DNA from: Acanthamoeba sp. SK_2022b
Taxonomy: Eukaryota; Discosea; Longamoebia; Acanthamoebidae
NCBI GenBank assembly: GCA_027943245.1
Contig: JANDJZ010000208.1
Coordinates: 1-64,000, forward strand
Length of the DNA stretch: 64,000 nucleotides
Direction of reading: 5' to 3'
In this document: positions 1,570-32,168 of the stretch, one piece after another
Layout: the number at the start of each line of letters is the position of its first letter
Numbering within the stretch: the stretch's first letter is position 1
Notes under the pieces: generated by a model
Told to the model about the DNA's origin: nothing
The model's input: the letters and a program-made list of their open reading frames with translations, nothing else
Databases searched by the model: none
Position numbers and translations under genes: made by a program

Positions 1570-3395
1570 ATGGGAAGACCCTCCTCCATCACCGGCTTCC
1601 TCGTCTTCCTGGCCGCCGCAGCGTGCTTGGTCGGGCTCGCGCCCTGCGCCGAGGCCTACGGCGAGCCGGTTTCCTCGCTGCCGTCCTACCAGGAGCGCAC
1701 CGTGGGCTCCCTCATGAACGCCGCACGCGTCGGTACGCATATTTGGTTGCGTGAAATGGTAGTAGTGGATGAGGGTGGTAGAGGTATATACCAAGATGTT
1801 AAAGTGTTCGTTTCGTCTGACTCCGAACGTGTGTCGCAGGTCCGTCGGCGTTCACGACGGCCTACATGATCCCCGCGGGCTACCCGGCCTCGGGCATCGC
1901 GAGCGGGCTCGCCAGCCAGCAGCCACTGTACTTTGACCCCAAGCTCGCCATCACAGCGTCCGGCCACTCGCAAGACCTCGCAGTACGCATTTCTTTTACA
2001 TTTCTGTTTATCTTATTATAGCGCATAAGAACTTAAGTTAAATGCTACCCTTTATGGTTAATGCGAGATATTAAAATTAAATATTTATTTCCCGCAGACC
2101 AACTGCCACGCAGTTCAGTTCAACAGCTGCGACGGCACGGCGTGGTATACACGCGTGCGCAACACCTACACGTGCAACGCCCTCATCGGCGAGGGCATGC
2201 AGTACGCCTACCAAAGCGATCCGCTCACGGCCGTGAACGACGCCATGTGTGGATGGAACCAGGACGCCAGCGGCAACTACGCCTGCTGTCCCTGTACCGC
2301 CTCCCCATCAGTCCCCCCCACGAACTGAACCTCCTCCGGCCGTGCGTGTCGCCTCTGTCTCATGCCCTCCCCCCCCCGCCCACACACACGCAACGCAACA
2401 GCCAGCGGCACGAGCAGCACGGGCAGCACTTGCAATGGACTGAGGAACATGTACCTCTCATCGAGCTACAGCCGCGTCGGCGTGGGCTACGGCGCCGATG
2501 CCCAGACCGGCTACTACTACTGGTGCACCACGCCCGCATTACGCGCGCGCTCGCACGAAACGTACAAGTGCGTACACGAGTAGAGGCCAAGGCCTAACCG
2601 CGTGATCGCGCCAACGCACGCAGGACGCTGGACTTTGGCGCCTGCAACACGGAGACGTACTCCAACCTGATCGCGTCGGGCTCGCACATCATCCAGTCGG
2701 GCAACGTGCGCTTCTTTGCCACCTACTACGACGCCGTCGGCGCGCCCCAGAGCGCCCGCGTGTTCGTCGGCGGCTCGCCTCTCAATCTGCAGCTCGACAC
2801 CGGAAGCGCCAACATGGTACACTCCTCCGCACACACGCTCCATCGCGCGCGCACACAGCGCACTGTTGCTGATGTGACTTGTTTCAGGGCAACTACTACG
2901 CGACGTCTGCTGTGGGCGGCGCGTGCCGGTCATACTACTTCCAGTTCACGTCGGCCAGTGGTGGCGTCTACCGCTACCCCGAGACCGGCTACTTCAACAC
3001 CTACGGCGAGGGCTCGTGCACCCAGGACTGGACCCTCGCTCCCGGTTCGTAATTCAATTTATTTTAAAAATTTATTATTTGTTTTATTTTAATATTAAAA
3101 CAAAGCGTGATTGGTCGTTGCTGACTCGGCGAATGCGCGCAGTTGGCGAAACGGTTACTACTGTGGCGGACCCGCCGCAGAACGTGGCGGTGAGCGGCGT
3201 CACCTCGTCGTCGGCCGTCATCACGTGGTCGGCTCCCGCCACCGACGGCGGCAGCGCTGTGACCGGCTACACCGTCTACATCAGGGCCTACGGCACCGAA
3301 TTCTCGGCCGACACCTCCGGCACCAGCATCACCTTCAACAGTACTCCCAAGACCGCACATGCCCTGTCGCCGATCTCTCTCTCTCACGCGCGCGC

Positions 3396-26280: not shown

Positions 26281-27783
26281 CTAAGGCTGATCAAGACGGC
26301 TTCTCAAGAAGTGACACAGCTCCGTGCGTGCTACGGCGGTCTGTTCTCCGCTACGCATGTCCTTGACCGTGGCTGAGCCGGCCAGCAACTCCAAGTCACC
26401 GAGGATGACCACGAACGGCACCCCGACACCATGGGCGGCGTCGAGCTGCTTGCGGAGCGAGCGGCCCGCGGTCTGGTAGGCCAGGTGGGTGGCGATCTTG
26501 GCGTCCCACAGCTCCCGGGTGAGGGCGAAACGGTCGGCGTCTGTCACCCGACCCACCGTTACGACCACGGCGTCGGCCCTGGATGCGTTCGGGCCCGCCC
26601 CCGGCGCCTGGCTCTCCAGCGCTCGAGTCATGATGCCAAAGATGCGTTCGATGCCGATGCTGAAGCCCACGGCGGGCAAGTCCTCGCCCGAACGACGGAA
26701 GCTGCCCACGAGGCCGTCGTAGCGGCCGCCTCCGCAGATCGACCCGGCGTCCGACCCGGCATCGCTCACCGCCACCGCCTCGAACACCACGCCGGTGTAG
26801 TAGTCCAGCCCACGCACCAGGCTCAGGTCGAGCTTGAGCGTCACGGAAAAAGGCTCCCCGCCGCTGCCGCCGCCTCGGTCGACTGGCGATCGGTGGAAAG
26901 AGGCCACGAAGCCGGGCGGCGCGAGGACGCGGACGTGGGCGAGCATGAGTTCGAGGTCGTCAAGAGCGGCGCCCACCTGGGCCGAGCCGGCCAGCAGCGG
27001 GTCGGCGCGGAGGAAGGCGATGAGATCAGAGGCCTCGGGGAAGCGCTCGGTGGCCGATGACAGCGACACCACGTAGCCACGAAGCCGGTCCGCCACGGCC
27101 GCGTCGAGGCCGCGCACGTCGACCAGCTCGGCGCGCACCTCGTCCCACGAGCGCTTGTCAAGCTTGTCCACGGAGCGCGCCACGGGCACGAGGAGCTCGC
27201 CGGGCACGCCACACGCCGCGAACAGGCCATCGAGCAGCTTGCGGTGGTTGATGCGGAGGGATACGCGGCCCAGCGCCTGGTGGACCGCGCGTGGCAGTGA
27301 GCGGAAGATCTCGCCGATCATGACGGCGCACTCGGCGTCGGGCACCATGGCGTCGGCCGGGCCGGCATAGTCAAAGTCGCACTGATAGAACTCGCAGTAG
27401 CGGCCCTTGGTCATTCGAGGCGTGTCGCGCCTGTAGACCTTGCCGATGCAGTAGCGCTTGAACGCGGGCAGGTCGAGCGAGGCCACGTAGCGGGCAAAGG
27501 GCACCGTGAGGTCGTAGCGCAGGGCCGTGCGCTCCCCGCTCCCGCTCTCGCCCCCCTCGGACACGATCTCGAAGACCTCCTTGCTGCCCTCGCCGTAGTT
27601 GCCGCGAAGTGCGTCGACCAGCTCCATGATCGGCGTGTCCATTGTCACCGCGCCGTGGGTGACGAACACGGCCTTGATGCATTCGATTGCCATCTCGCGG
27701 GCTCGCACCTCGAGCGGCGAGTAGTCCCTGGTCCCTGTGGGCGTCTTCGTTGGTCTCAGATATGGTGTGGTGGAGGCCTGCAT
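26281..27783 (-). CDS. HARS: Histidyl-tRNA synthetase
   Basis: Class II aminoacyl-tRNA synthetase that charges tRNA-His, 500 residues in a single exon. ATG 27783 is chosen because the frame further upstream opens only with GTG. It begins close to the catalytic core (TPTGTRDYSPLE). Motif 1 lies in the first 80 residues. Motif 2 is GKVYRRDTPRMTKGRYCEF with the RYDLTVPFARYVA strand before it. The histidine A motif is LVRGLDYYTGVVFE, motif 3 is AVGFSIGIERIF, and the C-terminal anticodon-binding domain is around LAYQTAGRSLRKQL. A WHEP domain, present in animal cytosolic enzymes, is absent. Whether it serves cytosol, mitochondrion or both cannot be decided; no clear presequence is visible from this start. 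It is head-to-head with histidine ammonia-lyase. Confidence 0.95.
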   Translation of the reverse strand: MQASTTPYLRPTKTPTGTRDYSPLEVRAREMAIECIKAVFVTHGAVTMDTPIMELVDALRGNYGEGSKEVFEIVSEGGESGSGERTALRYDLTVPFARYVASLDLPAFKRYCIGKVYRRDTPRMTKGRYCEFYQCDFDYAGPADAMVPDAECAVMIGEIFRSLPRAVHQALGRVSLRINHRKLLDGLFAACGVPGELLVPVARSVDKLDKRSWDEVRAELVDVRGLDAAVADRLRGYVVSLSSATERFPEASDLIAFLRADPLLAGSAQVGAALDDLELMLAHVRVLAPPGFVASFHRSPVDRGGGSGGEPFSVTLKLDLSLVRGLDYYTGVVFEAVAVSDAGSDAGSICGGGRYDGLVGSFRRSGEDLPAVGFSIGIERIFGIMTRALESQAPGAGPNASRADAVVVTVGRVTDADRFALTRELWDAKIATHLAYQTAGRSLRKQLDAAHGVGVPFVVILGDLELLAGSATVKDMRSGEQTAVARTELCHFLRSRLDQP

Positions 27784-28134
27784 AGTGCTCGATGTTGTTG
27801 TCTCTCCTGAAAGCGAGCTCCTTGGGCTTGGGCAAACAGCAGTTCTAGAAGTCACGACTTCATAAATTCACGAGTTCTTGAAGTCGGCTGGATGGATGGC
27901 AGTCACGTCAGGATTCGCCCGAACCTGAACGTCCTCTTGGAGCGGTAGAAAAGGTGACCCGTTTGCCTAAAATGCCCCAAAGTTGTGGAATAGAGCAACG
28001 CCTTACGGCGAATCCTGAACAGGAATTGGTTGGCTGGCCAAACTCTAGAACTCGTGAAGTGCGGAAGTCGACATTCAGGGGAAGGGACATGAGTCAAGCG
28101 CGCACAACCCAATAAACCAACCAGCAGCTGAAGG
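27784..28134. promoter_or_regulatory. Divergent HARS/HAL promoter with two nested pairs of inverted 12-mers
   Basis: The 351-base spacer contains TTCACGAGTTCT at 27867-27878 and its exact inverse at 28047-28058. It also contains TCAGGATTCGCC at 27908-27919 and its exact inverse at 28007-28018. Both pairs are centred at about 27963. The distance from outer to inner site is 29 bases on the left and 28 on the right. A local CGACTTC...GAAGTCG pair (about 27855-27886) is also present. The symmetry suggests shared control of the two flanking genes (inference). Confidence 0.65.
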
Positions 28135-29906
28135 ATGCAGGCCACGGTACGTCTTATGCGTGCAGGAGTTCTCTTGCGTGAAGTCCTCACTCCCAATCTT
28201 GTGTATGTCCCGCTGTGCGTTGTTTGCAGGACAACACCACGATTAGCCTAGACGGAGAGACCTTATCTCTTCAGGACCTCGTCGCCATCATGGAGCGCCG
28301 TGCCACAGATGTTGATCTTTCCCAGGCCGCGTGGGATCGGGTGGACCAGTCGGCCCGAGCCGTACAACGCATGGTCGATGACCACAAGGTGGTCTACGGT
28401 GTCACGACAGGCTTCGGCTCGCTGAAGAGCGTGGTGATTCCGCCCAGCCAAGCCGCCGAGCTACAGTACAAGCTCATTGTGTCGCATGCCATCGGGGTAG
28501 GACGGCCGGTGGAACCGAGCATCGTACGCGGCATGCTGGCTCTGCGCATCAACGCCGTGGCCCGTGGCTTCAGCGGGGTACGCCCGGAGGTGGTGCGGGC
28601 CATGCTGGCGGCACTCAAGGCCGATGCTCTGCCTGTGGTCCCCTGCCAGGGCACAGTTGGCGCGTCGGGCGACCTGGCGCCGCTGTCTCACCTGGTGCTC
28701 GGGCTCATGGGCCTCGGAGAGATGCTCGATCCTCGGACGGGAGACGTCGCCCCGGCCTCGGAGGTGCTTAAGGCTCTTGGGCTGAAGCCCATCAATTTGG
28801 GCCCCAAGGAGGGCCTGGCCCTCAACAACGGGACCCAGTTCATGACCGCTCACGTAGCCTACGCAGCGCACTACGCAAGACTGCTCTACAAGCAAGCCAC
28901 GGTAGTTGCCGCATTAACGGTGGAGGCGCTGAGGGGCACCAACCGAGCTTACGACGCCCGCGCGCACGACTGGGCGAAGCCCCACCCGGGTCAGGTCGAG
29001 ACCGCCCGTCAGCTCAGGTGGCTCTTGGGCACCAGCGTCTCGGCCTCTTGCGCGCCCACGTGTCATCAAGGGCATCATCGCCACGAAAAGGCTCCATTCA
29101 CCCACGACGGACCAGCGGCAGCCACTCCCCAAGGACCGTCGACCATCTTTGAGAGATATGGCAGCAAGCACCTACAGGAGGCCTACTCCCTGCGCTGCAT
29201 CCCGCAAGTGCACGGCCCGGTGGTGGAGAACGTGGAGCGGGTAGCTGCCACGGCCACCGTGGAGATGAACAGCGCCAACGACAACCCGCTCATATTTGGC
29301 GAGGAGGAGATGGCAGAAGCAGTGTCGGCCGGCAACTTTCACGGCCAATACGTTGCCGACGCGGCCGACAATCTGGCCCGCGTGCTGTCGACCCTGACCA
29401 ACGCCAGCGAGCGGCGCATCGAGCGGCTGGTGAACGGTCAACTTAACGGACTCGGGAGCTCCTTCCTCACCAAGAAGGACGAGGTCGGGCTCAACTCGGG
29501 CTTCATGATCTGGCAGTACATGGCCGCCGGGCTCGCGGCCGAGAACCGAGTGCACGCGGCCCCTGGATCGGTGCATTCGATACCTACATGTGAGAACCAG
29601 GAGGACTTGGTCTCCATGGGCGGCTATCCCGCTCGGCGGACTTTGGTGATCATCGACAACGCCTTCCACGTTCTGGCGGCAGAGCTCGTCATCGCCTGCC
29701 AGGCGCTTGAGCTCACTCCCGATGCACAGACCACAGTTCCTCTCCGTCGCGTGTACGACCTAGTCCGCGGGGCAGGCATCAAGGCGGTGTGGAGCGACTC
29801 TTATATCAAGCCCTACGCCGACATCGCCTTCCAACTTTTAAGGCGCGGTCAAGTTCTGAAAGCGGCCTACCACGGCACCCCAGACCTGATACACAAAAAC
29901 CACTGA
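28135..29906 (+). CDS. HAL: Histidine ammonia-lyase (histidase)
   Basis: Converts histidine to trans-urocanate and ammonia, the first step of histidine breakdown in the cytosol. Exon 1 is a tiny 12-base exon (28135-28146, Met-Gln-Ala-Thr), joined to 28230-29906; phase and AG|GT signals agree. The MIO prosthetic group forms from Ala-Ser-Gly at 28662-28670 in GTVGASGDLAPLSH. Other family marks are YGVTTGFG, LALNNGTQFM, QEAYSLRCIPQVHG, NSANDNPLIF, FHGQYVAD and NGLGSSFLTKKDEVGLNSGF. Between LRWLLGTS and RYGSKHLQEAYS there is a segment rich in His, Pro and Ala (about 29041-29150) that is less typical and could be an insertion or an unrecognised intron that stays open. Divergent from the histidyl-tRNA synthetase gene. 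Confidence 0.94.
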
Positions 29907-29982: not shown

Positions 29983-32168
29983 TTACTTCTCTTCGTAGAT
30001 GCCCACCTTACCCGTTCTGGAGCGGCCGATCGCCAGTTCGGCGGCCGTGTAGCCTTCGTTATCGAGAAGCTCGGGCTTAGCCCCTTCTGAGATCAAAAGA
30101 TCGCACATAGGACGCCATCCTGCGGCCGACGCCAGCATTAGAGGGGTGCGGCCCATCTGCTCCTTGGCGTTGATCCACTGAACCAACCCCTCCGCGCCCA
30201 CGCGGTTCGACAGCGCGTCGATCAGAAGCCTGGCAGAACGTCTATCGCCGTTAAGTGAGGCGTGGTGAAGAGGAGTCCAGCCGTCGTTGTTGGCTCTGGT
30301 TGGATCGGCTCCAAAGGAGAGCAGGAATCGGACCACCTCAAACTGCTGCATCGTGGCTGCAATGTGTAGGGGCGAGTTGCCGGTCCGAGCGTCAGTGTGG
30401 CCGGTGTGGCCTCTTCCCTGCGCGGTCATGTGTTCGAGCAGGTTGAGGAAAGTGGCCGAATGACTGCCCAACAGAAAGACATCAGCGTCGGGGAGGCCCT
30501 GAAAGCGGTTGCGCGGCAGCGATAAGGCCATCTCGACCACCTGTCGGTGGCCGTTGTAGAAAGCCCGCTCTAAGGCGGTAGCGCCCCAATTGTTCCGGTG
30601 GGAGAGGCGTGCGCCCCGCTCGAGTAGGTCCCACGCGATCAATGCGTGTCCGTTCTCCATGGCCAAATGGAGTGGGGTCTGGCCCATACAGTTCGTAGCT
30701 TCGATATCCAGGTATGGTGTCCTAAGGTGACGTCGCACAGAGGTGATGTCGCCCTGTTCGCAGGCTTCATGCAGAGTAATGACAGTGGTCAGCTCCTTGT
30801 CACCAAGCAACAGCTTGGTGGCAACATCCAGCCGCATGAGCACTTCGTCCATGGAATCAGGCCGGCGTCTTGGCTCCAGTTCGAGGCAGTCTCTCAGCAA
30901 CTCTTCCATCCTCGTCACGAAGCCAGGCGGCGCGCGGTGCAACTCCTCGCTCTTTGCACGCAGAGTGTCGAACACAATCATGCCGAAATGATAGATGTCC
31001 GATTGCTCGGTGTAGTGACCGTAACCGCCGACAACCTCCGGTACCCACACCTTGCTCACATTGTGCACGGTCGAATCGAATGACATGCGTTCGCCTATCA
31101 GTTGTATCGCCGTGCCCATGTCAATGATCACTCCACGACCATCCGGAGTAACCTGGCGCATGTCCACTTGTGTTAAGAAGAAGGAACAGATGCAGCGCAA
31201 TAAATCAAGAATTACCATAACGTTCTGAGTGTGCAGGTCTCTGTGGATATACTTGAACTGGTGATCGTGCATGCTCCTGAGACCCAGGCCTACGTCCTTG
31301 ATGATACGCATCAGGTCGGCGAGGTTCTGTGCCCTCTCAGAGATGAAAGTTTCCCACGTGCACAGTCGTGTGTCATTGACGAGGATCGCGAGGTAACTTT
31401 TGTGGGGCAGAATAAGCCAGAGACCTTTGCTCCTTGTGGAGAGCACATTCCTATGCTTGATGCGCCTAAAACCACCGGTCACGAGTTCAATCACAGCTAC
31501 TCCATGGTTTTTGATTGTTGTCTACCTGAGCGCGGCCTGCTCGGACAGCCAGGAAGAGGGGGTGTAGCTACTGGTCATCTCCACAAGCTTTATCACCTGC
31601 TCCCTCGCCGTCGAGCTCTGCTTCGTGTGCAACGCACGGTAGATGTTGCCGTGGTAGCCCGACCCGAGAGCCTCATAGATCTCATATCCCTTGCTACGGA
31701 ACAGACTCTTGATGACCTCCGCTTCTTCCGCACTACAGCCGCTGATCAGGTTGACTGTGTCCTCGCGCGTCTGCACGTTCAATATGAAACGTGCCGCAGT
31801 ACGTTTTTGTGGGTGAGCTGCTGTACCTCGAGGTTGATGGTGCGCCCCGTGATCTTGTCATGGTCATCACCTTTGAGTAGAAAGCCAGGGGGCATCTGAT
31901 ACCCCATGTCGTGCCACCCTCTCCTTGAAAGAGCCGCGATCCATTGGCCCTCCCAAGCCAGAGACAAGCTCTCGAGGTCCGTAAGCGAAGTAGAGTGTGA
32001 TGTCTTGGGGGTACGGTAGCTGCGAGGCATGTGACGGAGGAAATGGATGAGGGGCAGGTCGGTGTAATGTGTGGGAGGCACGTGCAACGAAGGGTCCTCC
32101 ATGAAGTCGAAGCTATGCTGATGTAAGCAAAAGGAGACCGGGTAAAAACCTGATGTCTTGACTTCCAT
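29983..32168 (-). CDS. Protein kinase with C-terminal ankyrin repeats
   Basis: The N-terminal exon (31803-32168) encodes about 120 residues of unknown function from ATG 32168. A very short intron (31771-31802) joins TINLEVQQLTHKN to TREDTVNLISG. The kinase N-lobe follows, with a glycine loop GSGYHGNIY and a Val-Ile-Lys strand. The junction near 31480-31530 could not be resolved in phase. The catalytic loop is YIHRDLHTQN; an in-frame intron of about 50 bases probably separates it from the metal-binding Asp in VIIDMGTA, where DMG replaces DFG. The C-lobe has SDIYHFGMIVFDTL. At least three clear ankyrin repeats follow (GQTPLHLAMENGH, GNSPLHIAATMQQ, GWTPLHHASLNGD) and a fourth (GRTPLMLASAAGW). 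Catalytic Asp and Asn are present, so activity is likely. It is head-to-head with an SH2 protein, which suggests a signalling link. Confidence 0.82.

What the first reader, a model, noticed from the sequence alone, without database searches (positions are those of the whole stretch)
27784..28134. Histidyl-tRNA synthetase and histidine ammonia-lyase are head-to-head, with symmetric inverted sites between them
The two enzymes compete for the same amino acid: one charges it to tRNA, the other destroys it. Their ATGs are 351 bases apart on opposite strands. The spacer holds two exact 12-mer inverted pairs (27867/28047 and 27908/28007) sharing one centre at about 27963, with outer-to-inner gaps of 29 and 28 bases. 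This is seen directly. That the sites bind a histidine-responsive regulator or make the promoter symmetric is inference.
Basis: partly seen in the sequence, partly recalled or inferred. Interest (0 to 1): 0.8.

Follow-up and report, generated by a model that had tools for sequence, protein, structure and literature searches.

The report
Mirror-image promoter between two histidine genes
In an amoeba genome, the gene that loads histidine onto tRNA and a gene that breaks histidine down start back to back, and the short DNA between them carries the same two short motifs in mirror image; the symmetry is real and unusual, but nothing yet shows that it responds to histidine.

Summary
HisRS (minus strand, ATG 27783) and a histidine ammonia-lyase (HAL; plus strand, ATG 28135 in a predicted 12-nt first exon) lie head to head across 351 bases. 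Both 12-mer inverted pairs are exact and share a centre within 0.5 nt. No other common-centre double of 9 or more bases occurs in 174,971 bases searched; 0 of 20,000 shuffles held two pairs. In gene sense each side reads GGCGAATCCTGA, 29 or 28 nt, AGAACTCGTGAA-n5-GAAGTCG, 71 or 64 nt, ATGCAGGCC; outside the blocks the halves match at only 5-34%.

Best reading: a compact bidirectional promoter in which each gene has its own copy of one two-part module, so the same factor(s) probably act on both. It may stem from an inverted promoter duplication.

The histidine-responsive part is not supported: the composite and exact TTCACGAGTTCT occur only here in the 45 Mb assembly, and the second HAL and a urocanase-like gene lack a close copy. 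Conservation in other Acanthamoeba, start sites and expression could not be tested. Profilins support the genus Acanthamoeba. Interest is moderate; the kind is known.

The parts
26281..27783 (-). Histidyl-tRNA synthetase (HisRS), 500 aa, single open frame, ATG at 27783
   Evidence: ORF; PF13393, PF03129; TIGR00442 268 bits, below its cut-off; listed relatives 34-51% identical, the named ones eukaryotic HisRS
28135..28146 (+). Predicted exon 1 of HAL, ATGCAGGCCACG (MQAT)
   Evidence: splice site inferred, no transcript
28147..28229 (+). Predicted 83-nt HAL intron GTACGT...TTTGCAG
   Evidence: inferred from GT-AG ends, frame and alignment of the downstream exon to other HALs
28230..29906 (+). 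HAL main exon (aromatic amino acid lyase; ASG, SHA and NQED stretches as in the bacterial HutH aligned)
27784..28134 (.). 351-bp divergent intergenic region, presumed bidirectional promoter; no second copy found in the assembly
   Evidence: (E up to 10 in own genome: self only)
27908..27919 (-). Inner block, HisRS side (GGCGAATCCTGA in gene sense), 125-136 nt before its ATG
28007..28018 (+). Inner block, HAL side (GGCGAATCCTGA), 117-128 nt before its ATG
27855..27878 (-). Outer block, HisRS side: AGAACTCGTGAA (27867-27878) plus n5 plus GAAGTCG; three GAA at 8-nt steps
28047..28070 (+). Outer block, HAL side: AGAACTCGTGAA (28047-28058) plus n5 plus GAAGTCG; three GAA at 8-nt steps
27775..27783 (-). 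HisRS start ATGCAGGCC, identical to the HAL start
   Evidence: (pair I9)
28135..28143 (+). HAL start ATGCAGGCC, identical to the HisRS start
   Evidence: (pair I9)

Best explanation
The 351-bp spacer is a compact bidirectional promoter built from two mirror-image copies of one two-block module, one copy per gene, each in the same order, orientation and nearly the same distance from its own ATG. The same DNA-binding factor or pair of factors most likely occupies both copies, so the two genes share their activating (or repressing) input. Shown: the layout, the exactness, and that similarity is confined to the blocks. Inferred: protein binding, promoter activity, co-regulation. The module pair may have arisen by inverted duplication of one promoter, perhaps including the first codons, followed by loss of similarity everywhere except at selected sites.
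For: Two exact 12-mer pairs with one centre, the only such double at k=9 or more in 174,971 bases and absent from 20,000 shuffles. Gene-sense order and spacing match on both sides: inner block starts 136/128, outer 95/88, third block 78/71 nt before the ATG. Along the mirror axes, positions outside the blocks match at 24 of 71, 1 of 19 and 12 of 43 (outer centre) and 16 of 71, 2 of 19 and 9 of 43 (inner centre), against 26 of 34 in the outer element and 12 of 12 in the inner: the pattern of constrained sites in an otherwise free spacer. Shared ATGCAGGCC at both starts.
Against: Within one genome, blocks picked because they match cannot prove constraint. The end-to-end promoter alignment is only moderately better than shuffles: local 46 against mean 25.4, sd 4.6, largest 49 of 2,000; global 97 against mean 73.7, sd 6.7, largest 115.5 of 2,000. 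The blocks could lie in transcribed leaders rather than promoters. No other place in the assembly has the composite, so no factor can be proposed by analogy. The genome background is 0.4% of the assembly.
Confidence: 0.6

Rival explanations
1. Histidine switch: one histidine- or charging-responsive regulator binds the twin modules and partitions histidine between protein synthesis and breakdown, perhaps in opposite senses for the two genes.
For: The two enzymes use the same substrate and share the module layout.
Against: The composite is not found elsewhere in the assembly, nor exact TTCACGAGTTCT; nothing within 2 mismatches close upstream of the second HAL on C720 or the urocanase-like gene on C604. 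Identical sites in mirror layout predict the same, not opposite, response. One pair of related neighbours can be coincidence among the many divergent pairs of a genome.
Confidence: 0.1
2. Relic of an inverted duplication (promoter plus start codon of one gene copied in front of the other) with no present function of the symmetry.
For: Collinear blocks, shared ATGCAGGCC starts, 12-nt predicted HAL first exon.
Against: Neutral decay should leave similarity spread evenly; here it is 12/12 and 12/12 in the blocks and 5-34% elsewhere.
Confidence: 0.15
3. The blocks act in RNA: if the leaders are long enough, each mRNA carries the outer block and a short upstream frame near it, which could control its translation.
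For: Upstream ATGs at -80 (HisRS) and -46 (HAL) with frames MKS and MSQARTTQ; a longer frame starts at -163 on the HAL side.
Against: Start sites unknown; no Rfam match at E up to 1 in 27400-28500; if each mRNA starts on its own side of the centre it carries one copy, so the mirrored arms cannot pair within it.
Confidence: 0.08
4. Mobile-element remnant (MITE-like inverted repeat) or chance.
For: Imperfect inverted repeat; the DNA strand folds better than its shuffles, z -2.81, 1 of 200 as good, as any inverted repeat would.
Against: No second copy of the spacer in the assembly at E up to 10; chance made unlikely.
Confidence: 0.05

Closest known systems
Divergently paired genes sharing a promoter (DPGs; PMC2670823, abstract and outline seen)
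   Same: Two genes on opposite strands with starts well under 1 kb apart; shared regulatory sequence expected
   Different: Here the spacer carries two whole mirror-image modules; start sites and co-expression are not known
Drosophila ras2/rop bidirectional promoter (PMC1968695, abstract seen)
   Same: Short elements in one spacer bind a protein complex needed for both flanking genes
   Different: There, by the abstract, one pair of sites (A+B) serves both genes; here there are two oppositely oriented copies, and binding is not shown
Human HARS/HARS2 head-to-head HisRS locus (recalled; two searches gave no paper that I saw describe it)
   Same: A HisRS gene driven from a divergent promoter
   Different: There the partner is a second HisRS; here it is a histidine-degrading enzyme
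Acanthamoeba TBP promoter with TPE element at -97 to -77 and TATA box near -30 (PMC11965365, passages seen)
   Same: An Acanthamoeba promoter with an upstream element at a comparable distance
   Different: That distance is from the start site, ours from the ATG; the TPE sequence was not in the passages, so the motifs were not compared

Membership tests
Bidirectional promoter / divergently paired genes | Two genes on opposite strands, starts less than 1 kb apart | tested here: met
   ATG to ATG 351 bases; ATGs used as stand-in, start sites unmapped; definition from the abstract of PMC2670823
Bidirectional promoter / divergently paired genes | One fragment drives transcription both ways; genes co-expressed | not testable with these tools
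   no expression or reporter data
Histidine regulon | Same motif upstream of other histidine genes | tested here: not met
   assembly; loci of the second HAL and of a urocanase-like gene; sites within 2 mismatches lie inside or downstream of the genes or about 1.5 kb upstream. Only these two other histidine genes were looked at; more degenerate sites are not excluded
Histidine regulon | Response to histidine supply | not testable with these tools
   needs expression data
MITE or other dispersed inverted repeat | Several copies in the genome | tested here: not met
   one match, itself
Histidine ammonia-lyase (as against PAL/TAL) | Best model HAL and HAL-type active-site residues | tested here: met
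   NF006871 above cut-off, TIGR01225 just below, PAL model 252 bits; ASG and SHA columns shared by all five aligned sequences, NQED with the bacterial HutH and the Asterias HAL (GQED and KED in the other two). The meaning of these residues is recalled
Conserved regulatory pair | Pair and blocks kept in other Acanthamoeba | not testable with these tools
   searches gave 2 bacterial loci and 0 viral ones, and say that records very near the window's genome may be left out; the protein searches listed no near-identical protein (best 120 of each)

The most novel reading that the evidence does not exclude
A dedicated histidine homeostat: one factor binds both mirror modules and links the capacity to charge tRNA-His to the capacity to destroy histidine, so a single divergent promoter sets the flux of one amino acid between translation and breakdown.
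Probability: 0.08. Interest if true: 0.7.

Novelty: new member of a known kind. Interest (0 to 1): 0.36.

Why it matters
It is a clean, short, testable example of a symmetric divergent promoter in a lineage where, as far as the passages I saw go (PMC11965365), only a handful of promoters have been used or dissected. If the modules prove to be bound sites, they give a route to an Acanthamoeba transcription factor and a simple case of how promoter symmetry arises. If the histidine link held, the use and the destruction of one amino acid would be tied in a single promoter.

Tried and rejected
Regulon search: assembly-wide patterns for each 12-mer with up to 1 mismatch gave 116 hits for TTCACGAGTTCT against 315 for the reversed word, and 123 for TCAGGATTCGCC against 54. 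The second excess is not explained; one reversed word is a poor control for base-neighbour bias, and of its 123 hits I looked only at the six exact ones (two here, four elsewhere).

HAL-HisRS fusion lead: P0226, a metagenomic HisRS, is listed with an aromatic-lyase domain. The match is below Pfam's cut-off, 24.6 against 27.3 bits, and a search with its first 330 residues found only itself. Dropped.

tRNA-like or RNA element: ARAGORN found no tRNA in the window; Rfam gave nothing at E up to 1 in 27400-28500.

The HutU-HutH neighbours on C310 looked like a histidine gene cluster of the amoeba, but the stretch carries intronless HutU, HutH and a permease-like frame in tandem, and the HisRS of C730 sits beside an IspG-like frame (HutU by model, other names by recognition). 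Both look like bacterial contigs in the assembly and were set aside.

Literature: no title or abstract start that I was shown concerns this gene pair. Searches: Acanthamoeba + bidirectional promoter (4 of 4 papers listed), Acanthamoeba + histidine ammonia-lyase (3 of 3), HisRS + bidirectional promoter (6 of 7), HARS2 + HARS + bidirectional promoter (2 of 2), HAL + HisRS + head-to-head, and wider ones of which I saw only the top: 12 of 931; 10 of 11; 10 of 17; 8 of 809; 2 of 2. Six papers were opened: abstract or outline of PMC1968695 and PMC2670823, passages of PMC9818230 (only a reference-list line on another gene pair), PMC11965365, PMC7281194 and PMC12210455.

Full report
What is there. The window lies in a 44.9 Mb assembly of 1,129 contigs (C377:1-64000). 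Of five profilin matches in it I compared three with the PDB: they match chains 1f2k, 1acf and 1prq far better than any other profilin. That these are A. castellanii proteins is recalled, so the genus Acanthamoeba is well supported, the species not. HisRS runs leftward from an ATG at 27783 and a histidine ammonia-lyase (HAL) runs rightward from an ATG at 28135. The HAL start needs a 12-nt first exon and an 83-nt GT-AG intron; the downstream exon then aligns with other HALs from near its first residues. Among the best 120 of 7,997 HAL relatives, those with names are HALs of animals, blastoclad and chytrid fungi and Capsaspora, and others are unnamed metagenomic proteins, at 35-47% identity. Among the best 120 of 7,996 HisRS relatives, those with names are eukaryotic HisRS, mostly of animals, at 34-51% identity. 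No near-identical protein was listed in either; close kin are either not held or left out, and state such an omission for the contig collections.

Other copies in the assembly. For HAL there are the window gene, a paralogue on C720 split into three matches, as an intron-bearing gene would be, and a HutH on C310. C310 also carries HutU and a permease-like frame in tandem and looks bacterial. A urocanase-like gene on C604 shows three weak matches, 29.7-39 bits, below the model's cut-off. For HisRS there are the window gene, a copy on C730 that looks bacterial, and exon-sized matches on C352, C248 and C832 that I did not resolve.

The symmetry. Both 12-mer pairs are exact and share a centre (27962.5 and 27963). 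Written in the sense of each gene (HisRS first, HAL second), the two sides read: GGCGAATCCTGA, 29 or 28 nt, AGAACTCGTGAA, 5 nt, GAAGTCG, 71 or 64 nt, ATGCAGGCC. The outer block holds GAA at exact 8-nt steps on both sides: 94, 86, 78 and 87, 79, 71 nt before the ATGs. Outside the blocks the mirror halves match at 24 of 71, 1 of 19 and 12 of 43 positions on one centre, and 16 of 71, 2 of 19 and 9 of 43 on the other.

Is it chance? Non-overlapping 12-mer inverted pairs occurred in 64 of 20,000 dinucleotide shuffles; none had two (the looser count, which let arms overlap, gave 445 and 108). In 174,971 bases, 14 single inverted runs of 12 or more within 400 nt were found, and one common-centre double at each of k=9 to 12, this one. 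The sample is 0.4% of the assembly and partly chosen by other criteria, so I do not claim uniqueness in the genome. A looser test, aligning the two promoters end to end, is less striking: local score 46 against 25.4 plus or minus 4.6, the largest of 2,000 shuffles being 49; global 97 against 73.7 plus or minus 6.7, the largest being 115.5.

Is it a regulon? Exact TTCACGAGTTCT occurs twice in the assembly, both here. Exact TCAGGATTCGCC occurs six times, two of them here. By my arithmetic, assuming the window's G+C of 57% throughout, about 3-4 and 6 copies would be expected by chance, so neither exact word is enriched; with one mismatch the second word is commoner than its reversed control (123 against 54), the first rarer (116 against 315). 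The composite of both cores occurs only here, with 1 hit for its reversed control; the extended outer block only here plus one 3-mismatch site, against 2 hits in its reversed control. Of the four other exact inner words, each lies in at least one stop-to-stop frame of 60 codons or more, which says little in G+C-rich DNA; one stands 14 nt before an ATG inside a longer open frame. At the second HAL (L029, match from about position 3097) sites within 2 mismatches lie about 1.5 kb upstream, inside, and downstream of the matched exons; at the urocanase-like gene (L040-L042) the two sites lie within the span of the matched exons. The spacer has no second copy.

How it most likely works. The layout is that of two promoters back to back, each with its own copy of the same module at nearly the same distance from its gene. 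The simplest mechanism is that the same factor or factors bind both copies, giving the two genes a common input; because the copies are oriented alike relative to their genes, the same response, not an opposite one, is the natural prediction. The exact match of the blocks in a spacer that is otherwise unlike suggests selection on the blocks. The shared first nine coding bases and the collinear blocks make an inverted duplication a plausible origin. None of binding, promoter activity or co-expression has been shown.

Verdict. The interpretation that goes beyond symmetry is unsupported by the genome-wide tests that could be run, and the strain comparison that would decide it could not be run. 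I rate it a new member of a known kind (divergent gene pair with shared promoter), of moderate interest.

Noticed in passing
G000 contigs C310 (178500-186000, L028) and C730 (33000-41000, L030): Intronless bacterial-type gene runs (HutU-HutH-permease-like; HisRS beside an IspG-like frame): probable bacterial contigs in the amoeba assembly.
   Followed up: partly
G000:C720:14596-16404 (L029): Second HAL, split into three matches of 47-53% identity, without the two-block module close upstream.
   Followed up: partly
window 28230-29906, residues about 270-303 of the HAL main exon: Insertion of about 30 residues absent from the four relatives aligned; a frame-preserving intron or a true insert, unresolved.
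   Followed up: partly
window 27852-27863 (-) and 28089-28115 (+): Short upstream frames MKS and MSQARTTQ before the HisRS and HAL starts.
   Followed up: no
window 27843-27850 and 27875-27882: TTCTAGAA and TTCTTGAA, two heat-shock-like TTCnnGAA pairs on the HisRS side (motif recalled; read by eye).
   Followed up: no
window 28161-28172: A 2-mismatch copy of the outer 12-mer lies inside the predicted HAL intron.
   Followed up: no
window 29983-31494 (-): Open frame with kinase-like and ankyrin-repeat-like sequence, convergent to HAL (by eye).
   Followed up: no
G000, 123 places: TCAGGATTCGCC with up to 1 mismatch is about twice as common as its reversed word (123 against 54); cause not examined.
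   Followed up: no
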